Origin: Agromyces mangrovi
Lineage (GTDB): Bacteria; Actinomycetota; Actinomycetes; Actinomycetales; Microbacteriaceae
NCBI RefSeq assembly: GCF_030296695.1
Contig: NZ_AP027737.1
Span: 2,294,001 to 2,358,000, forward strand
DNA: 64,000 bases
Direction of reading: 5' to 3'
The notes under the pieces were generated by a model. That model was not told the DNA's origin and made no database searches. It saw only the letters and a list, made by a program, of their open reading frames with translations. This document shows positions 27,747 to 42,365 of the stretch, in pieces. The position numbers and the translations under genes are program-made. Positions within the stretch are counted from its first letter, which is position 1. Every line of letters begins with the position of its first letter.

Positions 27747-28766
27747 ATGACACTCACCGACAAGGTCAACTCGGCGGCGCACGACCCGGCGCACCAGGGC
27801 GGCGTGAAGCTCGTCAGCCAGGTCAACGCGATCAACTGGAACCGCATCCAGGACGACAAGGACCTCGAGGTGTGGAACCGCCTCGTGAACAACTTCTGGC
27901 TGCCCGAGAAGGTGCCGCTGTCGAACGACGTGCAGTCTTGGAACACCTTGAACGCGGGCGAGCAGGAGCTCACGATGCGCGTGTTCACGGGCCTGACGCT
28001 GCTCGACACCATCCAGGGCACCGTGGGCGCCGTCTCGCTCATCCCCGATTCGCTCACCCCGCACGAGGAGGCGGTGTACACGAACATCGCCTTCATGGAG
28101 TCGGTGCACGCGAAGAGCTACTCCTCCATCTTCTCCACGCTCTGCTCCACGGAGGAGATCGACGACGCGTTCCGCTGGTCGGTCGAGAACCCGAACCTGC
28201 AGCGCAAGGCCGAGATCGTCATGGAGTACTACCGCGGCGACGAGCCCCTGAAGCGCAAGGTCGCCTCGACGCTGCTCGAGAGCTTCCTGTTCTACTCGGG
28301 CTTCTACCTGCCGATGTACTGGTCGAGCCGTGCGAAGCTCACCAACACGGCCGACCTCATCCGCCTGATCATCCGCGACGAGGCCGTGCACGGGTACTAC
28401 ATCGGCTACAAGTTCCAGAAGGGGCTCGAGCGGGTCGACCAGGCCAAGCGCGACGAGCTCAAGGACTACACGTTCTCGCTGCTCTACGAGCTCTACGACA
28501 ACGAGGTGCAGTACACGCAGGACCTCTACGACGGCGTCGGCCTGACAGAGGACGTCAAGAAGTTCCTGCACTACAACGCCAACAAGGCGCTGATGAACCT
28601 CGGCTACGAGGCGATGTTCCCGAAGGAGACGACGGACGTGAACCCGGCGATCCTCTCGGCGCTCTCGCCCAACGCCGACGAGAACCACGACTTCTTCTCG
28701 GGGTCGGGCTCGTCGTACGTGATCGGCAAGGCGGTGAACACCGAAGACGAGGACTGGGACTTCTGA
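27747..28766 (+). CDS. nrdF: Class Ib ribonucleotide reductase beta subunit
   Basis: Dimetal-tyrosyl radical subunit, 339 residues. Metal ligands and radical tyrosine are visible in [14 protein letters not shown] (Glu, His, Tyr), and in [13 protein letters not shown] (Glu, His). The acidic C-terminus ending DWDF is the peptide that docks on NrdE. Codons for this tail recur at 42347-42367, which suggests that the 3' end served as an integration site. The gene itself is complete. Confidence 0.96.
28746..28764. other. Candidate attL core in nrdF 3' end
   Basis: These 19 bases match 42347-42365 at 17 positions, with 12 identical in a row (ACTGGGACTTCT), in the same codon phase (D-x-x-W-D-F-stop). 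Together they would bound a 13.6 kb element. Confidence 0.5.
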
Positions 28767-28794
28767 TCTCCCGATTCTGACCGAAACGGCTGGT

Positions 28795-28836
28795 GAGAGG
28801 CCCGGATTCGCAGGAGTCTGCGGATTCGGGCCTCTC
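28795..28836 (+). terminator. Terminator after nrdF
   Basis: Long stem of 19 pairs including two G-T pairs, arms beginning GAGAGGCCCG and ending CGGGCCTCTC, 4-nt loop, followed by TTGT. It lies 29 nt past the nrdF stop. Confidence 0.75.
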
Positions 28837-28895
28837 TTGTGCCTTCTCTCGAGAGACAGAGGAGGACAGCAATGAACAGGAATGGCCGTTCGGTG

Positions 28896-29082
28896 TGGCA
28901 CGGGGGTGGCACGCGCCCACCTTCGTCGAGAGAGCGGGGTGGCTCGGCATCCGGAAATCGGGTTCGTCGTGCCATCGGGCTCGTGCCATATCGTGCCACT
29001 TCATCCTCCAGTGGTCGGGAGAAACTCCTGATCAAAAGGTGTTCAGTGCGCTCCTGGGTATGCAGTGGCACGGAATGGCACG
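28896..29082. repeat. TGGCACG repeats, candidate integrase arm sites
   Basis: Seven copies of TGGCACG or its complement in 187 nt: 28896, 28907 (direct), 28968, 28982, 28992 (inverted), 29066, 29076 (direct). Neighbouring copies are 10, 11 or 14 bp apart. No gene is seen in 28837-29119. Two more copies 11 bp apart lie beside the right-end core at 42285. Confidence 0.55.
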
Positions 29083-29122
29083 CCTGTCTACGTGAGTCCG
29101 CTCGTGACCACGGGAGGGCATG

Positions 29123-29291
29123 ATGAGCCCCGCACGAAGGATCGATTCGTCGACGGCGCGTAGGGAGGCGTGGGGGAGTCTTCGGAAGCTCCCGTCTGGC
29201 CGCTGGCAAGCTCGGTATCCCGCCCCGGACGGCGAGACGTACACCGCTCGTACCGAGGACGACAAGCCGCTCACGTTCCTCACGAAGACGG
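29123..29291 (+). pseudogene. Tyrosine integrase N-terminal remnant
   Basis: About 56 residues. GSLRKLPSGRWQARYPAPDG followed by LTFLTKTD is the arm-binding N-terminal domain of actinophage and ICE integrases. The frame then runs into IS3 sequence at about 29292, so the SAM-like and catalytic domains are missing. ATG 29123 (or 29120) follows GGGAGGG. Its place beside the nrdF tail and the TGGCACG repeats fits the integrase of the surrounding element. Confidence 0.65.
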
Positions 29292-41332: not shown

Positions 41333-41394
41333 GATGTCCAACCTCTCTGTGGTCCGTGTATCGGCCCAACGTCGGGCGAATGCTCCGAATCGTC

Positions 41395-41505
41395 GTCGAA
41401 CCGGTTCGACACACGGTAGCGGAAAGCTGGTAAGTCGTAAAGGGATTCCTTTTATTTCAAGGAGTGAACGGTTGCACGGCACGGGCGATGTTCAACCGGT
41501 TCGAC
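41395..41505. promoter_or_regulatory. Two LacI operators upstream of the giant hydrolase gene
   Basis: Perfect GTCGAACCGGTTCGAC at 41395-41410 and a 14/16 copy GTTCAACCGGTTCGAC at 41490-41505, 95 bp apart, a distance allowing repression loops. I see no gene in the rest of 41333-41729. Confidence 0.7.
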
Positions 41506-41729
41506 GATGAGCTGACGGGACTAGGTGCCCTACTCATCGGCCGCGTCAGATCCACAGCTCGTCTGGCGCCGGCCGCTCGGACAGCGGCTGACGTCGAGTC
41601 CCGCCGACCTGCACCGGCCCCGATTCGCGCGGACGCCAACCCCATTCGCGCGGCATGGCCCGCACGAGTGGGTCCCGCTCACGCGCATTGCTCGCAAGGG
41701 GATGCTTGCGGGCTGCTCTTTGGCGAGAC

Positions 41730-42155
41730 CTATAGTCGGAGGCCGTTGGTGCGGCGTGCGGTCCGCTGCCTATCGAATCCGAACCGCACCGGCGGTCCCA
41801 GGCGCTCTCGGACCTCCCCGACATCCGGTTCGAAATGGCGCAAGAGCGACACATATCCGAAGTGCTGGTTGTAGGTGAGCGCGTACCCCGCGGAGTCGTT
41901 GCGGACGACGCGGTCGGTGGGGCTCTTGGGGATCTCCTCGTAGACGTATCCGTTGACCAGCGCGGCGTCCCGCGTCTCGTCGCCGTAGTCCCACTGCGAC
42001 AGATGGCGGATTGCGGCCTCGGGTCCGTTCTTGTCGATCATGTCGAGCACGCCGTCGGCTTCCTCGCCCTGCATGAAGACGACGCTCATCCAGCGACGCT
42101 CGACGTTGACCTCAGGGTCATGAGGTGTGGCTGTTGCGGTGGTGCGATTGCTCAT
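41730..42155 (-). CDS. Conserved hypothetical actinobacterial protein
   Basis: 141 residues, no signal peptide or membrane helix. After a Thr/Ala-rich start come RRWMSVVFMQGEEADGVLDMI, in part, then LSQWDYGDETRDAALVNG and GYALTYNQHFGYVSLLRHFE. I recall similar small proteins in other actinobacteria but not a function. ATG 42155 is chosen for its AAGGGAG site; the frame continues to 42236. Last gene inside the proposed integrative element. Confidence 0.65.
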   Translation of the reverse strand: MSNRTTATATPHDPEVNVERRWMSVVFMQGEEADGVLDMIDKNGPEAAIRHLSQWDYGDETRDAALVNGYVYEEIPKSPTDRVVRNDSAGYALTYNQHFGYVSLLRHFEPDVGEVRERLGPPVRFGFDRQRTARRTNGLRL

Positions 42156-42284
42156 CGTGGGCTCCCTTCTCCACCTATGAGGTGCGCAGGGTCTACACGC
42201 GGCAAAGCCTGGGATTTCGTGTCGGCGTCTGGTCAATTACGCTTGCAATTGCGTGGCTCGCAGTCGACACCATTTCGGCGCGAG

Positions 42285-42365
42285 TGGCACGCAGATGGCA
42301 CGAGGATCGCGCCGACCTAGATTTCCTGCATGATTCCGCGGGTAGCGACAAGAACTGGGACTTCT
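42285..42365. other. Candidate attR with arm sites
   Basis: TGGCACG at 42285 and 42296 (11 bp apart), then the nrdF-like tail at 42347-42365 reading D-K-N-W-D-F-stop. An 80-codon frame covers this segment but looks non-coding. Arms lie on the element side of the core, as in attR of tyrosine-integrase elements. Confidence 0.5.

What the first reader, a model, noticed from the sequence alone, without database searches (positions are those of the whole stretch)
28746..42365. 13.6 kb carbohydrate island integrated in the 3' end of nrdF
19 bases of the nrdF tail recur at 42347-42365 with two G/A changes and in the same codon phase (D-x-x-W-D-F-stop). A tyrosine-integrase N-terminus and TGGCACG repeats lie next to the left copy; paired TGGCACG also lie next to the right copy. 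A hairpin in the chromosomal style follows the right copy, as if it were the displaced nrdF terminator. I do not know nrdF as a common insertion site.
Basis: partly seen in the sequence, partly recalled or inferred. Interest (0 to 1): 0.72.

Follow-up and report, generated by a model that had tools for sequence, protein, structure and literature searches.

The report
Mobile island family targeting gene nrdF
A 13.6-kb block of sugar-use genes was inserted precisely into the end of a gene bacteria need to make DNA building blocks, and close relatives of its now broken insertion enzyme sit at the same gene in other related bacteria.

Summary
Confirmed and widened. The 19-base nrdF tail (28746-28764) recurs at 42347-42365 with two G/A changes. 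Three congeners (G038, G015, G056) keep the uninterrupted site: nrdF joins directly to the sequence after 42365, and the two matches overlap by exactly these 19 bases. The interval is an integrative element that rebuilt the nrdF end, brought its own hairpin and displaced the native one. Its integrase survives as 57 residues fused to an IS3-transposase fragment, so it is probably stranded. Cargo: two glycoside hydrolases, an ABC sugar importer, a frameshifted LacI gene.

Beyond the finding: the integrase belongs to a clade (100/99) linked to nrdF. All 13 close-relative places in 11 Microbacteriaceae genomes have an nrdF tail upstream. In an order-wide sample, 7 of 7 places at 67% identity or more lie beside nrdF, in four families, against 0 of 13 more distant ones. 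Arm sites keep fixed positions. Some relatives form tandem arrays; one 48.9-kb interval holds a relaxase. A distant prophage-type integrase also uses nrdF. Ten paper searches showed no report of this site. Excision is untested.

The parts
27747..28766 (+). nrdF, class Ib ribonucleotide reductase small subunit; host gene whose last codons form the attachment site; reading frame intact
28746..28764 (+). left attachment copy (attL core), 19 bases, inside the last codons of nrdF
28795..28836 (+). element-borne hairpin that now follows nrdF (terminator-like)
   Evidence: (inverted repeat I2); similar hairpins at the same place in relatives
28872..29123 (+). 83-codon leader frame across the arm sites; its TGA overlaps the integrase ATG
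   Evidence: 84 codons in 13 of 17 sequences examined; no sign of selection on the peptide
28896..28913 (+). arm-type site pair 1 (TGGCACG at 28896 and 28907)
28968..28998 (-). arm-type sites, inverted (28968, 28982, 28992)
29066..29082 (+). arm-type site pair 3 (29066 and 29076)
29120..29290 (+). N-terminal 57 residues of a tyrosine integrase, rest missing
29292..29849 (+). C-terminal fragment of an IS3-family transposase, the only match in the chromosome
   Evidence: NF033516 positions 206-368 of 369
29928..31733 (-). cargo: MGH1-like glycoside hydrolase
31705..32517 (-). cargo: sugar ABC transporter permease
32514..33509 (-). cargo: sugar ABC transporter permease
33555..34793 (-). cargo: extracellular solute-binding protein
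35099..35971 (-). cargo: LacI-type regulator frame, cut short by a frameshift (the rest continues in another frame)
36038..41482 (-). cargo: 1814-residue protein with LamG-like, CBM35-like and Ig-like domains and a GH5/39-like stretch
41730..42236 (-). protein of unknown function near the right end
   Evidence: no Pfam; phrog_23219, unknown function
42285..42302 (+). right arm-type pair, 55 and 44 bases before the core
   Evidence: same spacing in 3 of 4 other right ends examined
42347..42365 (+). right attachment copy (attR core), 19 bases; displaced end of nrdF
42410..42442 (+). displaced native hairpin of nrdF
   Evidence: inverted repeat I1; follows nrdF directly in three congeners

Best explanation
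28765-42365 is an integrative element. A tyrosine integrase of an nrdF-specific clade recombined a circular element (attP) with the 3' end of nrdF (attB). The exchange lies within the 12 bases ACTGGGACTTCT that both copies share, inside a 19-base core. The element's attP supplied the last base of the rebuilt nrdF tail, the new stop TGA and a new hairpin; the old tail, stop TAG and native hairpin moved to the right end. Integrase arm sites flank the core as pairs about one helical turn apart: three pairs on the left and one on the right. Later an IS3-family insertion or deletion removed the integrase after residue 57, leaving sugar-use cargo. Shown: the empty site in three relatives, the 19-base junction, the site geometry, the nrdF linkage of the integrase clade. 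Inferred: the circular intermediate, the function of the arm sites, the order of events. Likely: nrdF is a good target because the NrdF C-terminal tail cannot vary (it binds NrdE; recalled, no call).
For: Empty sites with exactly 19 shared bases: G038 (window 27741-28764 and 42347-43269), G015, G056; nrdF and the next gene are 86 and 120 bp apart in G038 and G015. Only two copies of the tail in the chromosome. Close integrase relatives: 13 places in 11 of 398 family genomes (70% identity or more over at least 43 residues); a full nrdF is within 1.5 kb upstream at 11 of 13 and an nrdF-type tail within 900 bp at 13 of 13. Order-wide sample: 7 of 7 places at 67% or more beside nrdF, 0 of 13 at 54% or less. 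One clade of 13 rows, support 100/99. Left arm sites: 8 of 17 sequences have all six at the same leader coordinates as the window. Right pair 55 and 44 bases from the core in the window, G115, G428 and G404. GC 65.7% against 70.0% and 68.9% in 20-kb flanks.
Against: No excision or integration has been seen; the integrase is broken. G056 matches only 111 bases past the core, then has other DNA. Of the other right ends, G378 has no arm pair. L238 has 1.3 kb between nrdF and integrase. The weaker relatives (L230-L234, 5 of 5) have no nrdF tail nearby, so the rule holds only for the clade. The GC difference is small. In G115 and G404 the left arms read GGGCACG but their right pair is TGGCACG plus GGGCACG, so the change is not fully concerted.
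Confidence: 0.95

Rival explanations
1. The second tail is a chance or decayed duplication of the nrdF end, and the genes between are ordinary chromosomal genes.
For: Decayed nrdF pieces do occur downstream of nrdF in G044, and elsewhere in G045.
Against: Empty sites with an exact 19-base overlap in three relatives; arm sites at both ends in the geometry of other elements; 0 matches in shuffles.
Confidence: 0.02
2. The tail, arm sites and integrase fragment are an old attachment scar, and the sugar genes entered later, between the ends, by IS or homologous recombination.
For: The integrase is fused to a partial IS3 transposase, and no transfer gene was found among the island proteins scanned. 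Cargo-like hydrolase genes (55-56% identity) exist elsewhere in 3 of 59 other congeners, none near nrdF.
Against: No second IS copy in the chromosome and no repeats bounding the cargo alone were found. Both attachment ends are intact.
Confidence: 0.3
3. The island is a defective prophage.
For: Phage-type integrases (phrog_1); a prophage-like interval with an unrelated integrase uses the nrdF end in L017/G448.
Against: No phage gene in the island by Pfam. The integrase clade has no match above 60% in 50,697 phage records (best listed 38%) and none confirmed in viral contigs with the full-length query. With the 57-residue query six viral contigs gave short matches, whose context was not examined.
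Confidence: 0.08

Closest known systems
Tyrosine-integrase genomic islands and prophages at 3' ends of conserved genes
   Same: Gene rebuilt on insertion, short direct repeat, integrase beside one end, paired arm sites. A coding-gene example: Rhodococcus phage Sleepyhead, 3' end of an acyl-CoA dehydrogenase gene (PMC13313380, passages seen).
   Different: The target is nrdF; the integrase here is truncated; the cargo is for sugar use.
Actinomycete integrative conjugative elements (AICEs, pSAM2 type)
   Same: Actinobacterial integrative elements with tyrosine integrases (PMC3218068, passages seen).
   Different: Those are mostly in tRNA genes according to that paper. No transfer or replication gene was found in the island proteins scanned. 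A relative in G404 has a TrwC relaxase and a TraG/VirD4-type coupling protein, which is another kind of transfer system.
nrdF-inserted prophage-like element of Microbacterium sp. 2FI (L017, G448)
   Same: Same target gene, with a second nrdF tail 41.8 kb downstream.
   Different: Integrase in a distant, separately supported clade and on the opposite strand; carries a longer, 33-codon nrdF piece.

Membership tests
Tyrosine-recombinase integrative element | Uninterrupted target site in relatives | tested here: met
   G038, G015, G056
Tyrosine-recombinase integrative element | Direct repeat equal to the shared core at both ends | tested here: met
   19 bases, 17 identical
Tyrosine-recombinase integrative element | Target gene rebuilt | tested here: met
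   nrdF frame intact, ends DEDWDF
Tyrosine-recombinase integrative element | Intact integrase with catalytic domain | tested here: not met
   Only 57 N-terminal residues remain; so it is a remnant, not an active element
nrdF-linked integrase clade | N-terminus 70% or more identical, nrdF tail upstream | tested here: met
nrdF-linked integrase clade | Place in the tree | not tested
   The 57-residue fragment was too short and was not put in the tree
nrdF-linked integrase clade | Arm-site geometry on both sides | tested here: met
Integrative conjugative or mobilizable element | Relaxase or transfer genes | tested here: not met
   None among the island proteins scanned; present in the G404 relative
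Prophage | Phage structural or replication genes | tested here: not met
   None by Pfam; only a protein of unknown function matches a PHROG (two window proteins scanned)
Any of these | Excision or transfer observed | not testable with these tools
   needs an experiment

The most novel reading that the evidence does not exclude
The nrdF-linked elements form a family whose integrase is translated through its own attachment site: a leader frame of fixed length starts at a conserved ribosome site just past the attL hairpin, crosses the three left arm-site pairs and stops on the integrase start codon. Its openness, not its peptide, is kept. Integrase output would then depend on transcripts coming past the nrdF hairpin and on whether the arms are occupied, tying excision to ribonucleotide reductase expression and replication stress.
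Probability: 0.2. Interest if true: 0.7.

Novelty: new variant of a known kind. Interest (0 to 1): 0.52.

Why it matters
It adds a conserved coding gene, nrdF, to the recurrent landing sites of mobile DNA in actinobacteria, with a dedicated integrase clade whose att architecture can be read from sequence. It explains part of the very variable DNA downstream of nrdF, offers integrases for a site present in many actinobacteria, and shows how cargo is stranded when an IS cuts the integrase. The link between target and clade predicts the attachment site of any new member, which is directly testable.

Tried and rejected
Searching the named nrdF loci for a second tail or an adjacent integrase by motif found only the window and L129 (tail) and L017 and L020 (integrase starting about 120 bases past nrdF) among 139 sequences; larger elements run beyond the DNA held. 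Pfam on the 57-residue fragment gave nothing. The viral-contig scan with the fragment gave six short matches that I did not follow; with a full-length relative it gave none confirmed. Plasmid records: 22 matches, all below 60% identity. Defence genes after nrdF in other congeners are a separate matter. I considered the leader frame as an excisionase gene and put it aside: divergence at the three codon positions is equal (0.428, 0.428, 0.429). Its openness is also weaker evidence than it looks: 7.4% of random 84-codon frames of the same composition are open, the sequences are related, and one antisense frame is nearly as open (4 stops against 3). Sigma-70-type promoter scans at both ends found none. 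A working note gave 12 genomes for the close relatives; the recount is 11 genomes and 13 places.

Full report
The finding. nrdF (27747-28766) ends in DEDWDF-stop. Its last 19 bases before the stop's second base (28746-28764) recur at 42347-42365 with two G/A changes, in the same codon phase. These are the only matches in the window with up to 2 mismatches, against none in 100 shuffles, and a looser pattern has just these two matches in the whole chromosome.

The empty site. The genome's genus has 60 held genomes; 58 of 60 have nrdF. I read the DNA after nrdF at 58 loci of the other 57 genomes. In three (G038, G015, G056) nrdF is followed at once by the sequence that stands right of 42365 in the window. 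BLAST of each against the window gives one match ending at 28764 and one starting at 42347, overlapping by exactly 19 bases. With the window's two flanks joined, G038 aligns at 92.8% over 1922 bases, G015 at 91.0% over 1923, and G056 at 96.9% over 1110. In G038 and G015 the next gene is the window's luciferase-like gene 42449-43279, 86 and 120 bp from nrdF; G056 departs 111 bases past the core start. The three empty sites have the stop TAG, as does the right copy; the left copy has TGA, so the element rebuilt the nrdF end and changed its stop codon.

The ends. After the left copy comes an inverted repeat at 28795-28836 that the terminator scan flags; after the right copy comes the native hairpin 42410-42442, which that scan does not flag. 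Seven TGGCACG sites stand between nrdF and the integrase, and a pair stands 55 and 44 bases left of the right core. Over the whole window the 7-mer is not clearly enriched.

The integrase and its relatives. Frame 29120-29290 holds the first 57 residues of a tyrosine integrase; the homology then stops and an IS3-transposase fragment begins. It is the only copy of that fragment in the chromosome. A search of 398 family genomes found matches in 44 (own included). Places with 70% identity or more over at least 43 residues, own excluded, number 13 in 11 genomes. A full nrdF lies within 1.5 kb upstream at 11 of the 13; the other two, a short contig of G120 and a second unit in G428, have an nrdF-type tail; so 13 of 13 have the tail within 900 bp. 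Five weaker matches that I also fetched, of those listed, have none. One of the 13 lies beside a 64-65% nrdF paralogue in G428. A. bauzanensis (L003) has a degraded member as well.

Order-wide sample. With the 433-residue integrase of G115, 396 genomes gave 20 places in 16 genomes at E of 1e-60 or less (at most 4 candidates per genome were scored). Seven places have 67-79% identity; all seven have nrdF upstream, six of them with the tail 364-399 bases from the integrase start and one (L238) 1.3 kb away. They fall in four families. The other 13 (54% or less) have no nrdF match in the flanks held. In a maximum-likelihood tree of 32 integrases, 13 nrdF-linked rows form one side of a branch with support 100/99; truncated members were left out. 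The integrases of L017 and L020, which also abut nrdF but on the opposite strand, form a distant separate group. The tree program warned of long branches among the outer rows.

Architecture. Of 17 leader regions located out of 18 sought, 8 have all six arm sites at the window's coordinates (24, 35, 110, 120, 194, 204 from the leader start); the others lack some or are shifted. In G115, G404 and G417 the left sites read GGGCACG or AGGCACG instead. The right pair has identical spacing in the window, G115, G428 and G404, and is absent in G378. The region is spanned by a frame of 84 codons in 13 of the 17 and 83 in the window, whose stop overlaps the integrase start; it is cut in L003 and L220 and not closed in L244. 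The three codon positions diverge equally, so the peptide is not conserved.

What the relatives carry. Intervals between tail copies: 9.8 kb in G115 (integrase, DprA-like protein, two ISL3 transposases, D-lactate dehydrogenase); 7.1 kb in G378; 21.1 kb in G428, followed at once by a second integrase, thus a tandem array, with copper- and arsenic-type genes among 17 proteins scanned; 31.4 kb in G417; 48.9 kb in G404, with TrwC relaxase, TraG/VirD4-type coupling protein, DprA-like protein and copper-type genes (37 proteins scanned as a set, 10 singly), followed by two further tails, one with a 75-residue nrdF remnant. So this family looks integrative and in part mobilizable. None of 395 matching phage records reaches 60% identity.

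The cargo here. A glycoside hydrolase of the MGH1-like type, two ABC permeases, a solute-binding protein, a LacI-type regulator split by a frameshift, and an 1814-residue protein with LamG, CBM35 and Ig-like domains and a stretch similar to GH5/39-like enzymes of known structure. No transfer or phage gene was found among the island proteins scanned. The 601-residue hydrolase has homologues at 55-56% identity in 3 of 59 other congeners, all far from nrdF.

Literature. Ten searches of the held open-access library showed no paper on nrdF as an insertion site. For most I saw only listings with titles and starts of abstracts. I read found passages in PMC3218068, PMC12884075, PMC13313380 and PMC2784084: none of the passages shown names nrdF as a target. 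Papers outside that library were not searched.

Judgement. The island is real and its insertion mechanism is ordinary in kind. The broader result, an integrase clade dedicated to the nrdF 3' end in at least four families, appears new. Mobility today is doubtful because the integrase is cut.

Noticed in passing
window 28872-29123: Leader frame across the arm sites, 83 codons here and 84 in 13 of 17 sequences examined, overlapping the integrase start; open but with no sign of selection on the peptide.
   Followed up: partly
window about 43280-59355: A further 16 kb with sugar-type genes (LacI, solute-binding protein, permease) has no counterpart in G015, where the luciferase-like gene is followed within about 160 bases by the match to 59355. 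It is not bounded by nrdF tails.
   Followed up: partly
window 34790-35971: LacI-type regulator gene split by a frameshift; sequencing error not excluded.
   Followed up: partly
L127, L141, L147, L153, L173, L176, just after nrdF: Six congeners share a similar sequence with repeated GTTGATCC-like motifs starting 12-25 bases after the nrdF stop: perhaps the end of another kind of element.
   Followed up: no
L153 15083-18334: Oligonucleotide cyclase of CBASS type and a TIR protein similar to Aga after nrdF in a congener; a defence cluster at the same place.
   Followed up: partly
L129 (G044), G045:C1:481797-482435: Decayed repeated nrdF C-terminal fragments downstream of nrdF in G044, and a decayed nrdF elsewhere in G045.
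   Followed up: no
L157 (G012): After nrdF the first bases match the window's left end up to the start of its hairpin and then diverge, with no integrase relative in that genome: probably a remnant.
   Followed up: partly
L017, L020: Prophage-like elements in Microbacterium at the same nrdF end with a distant integrase: a second origin of nrdF targeting.
   Followed up: partly
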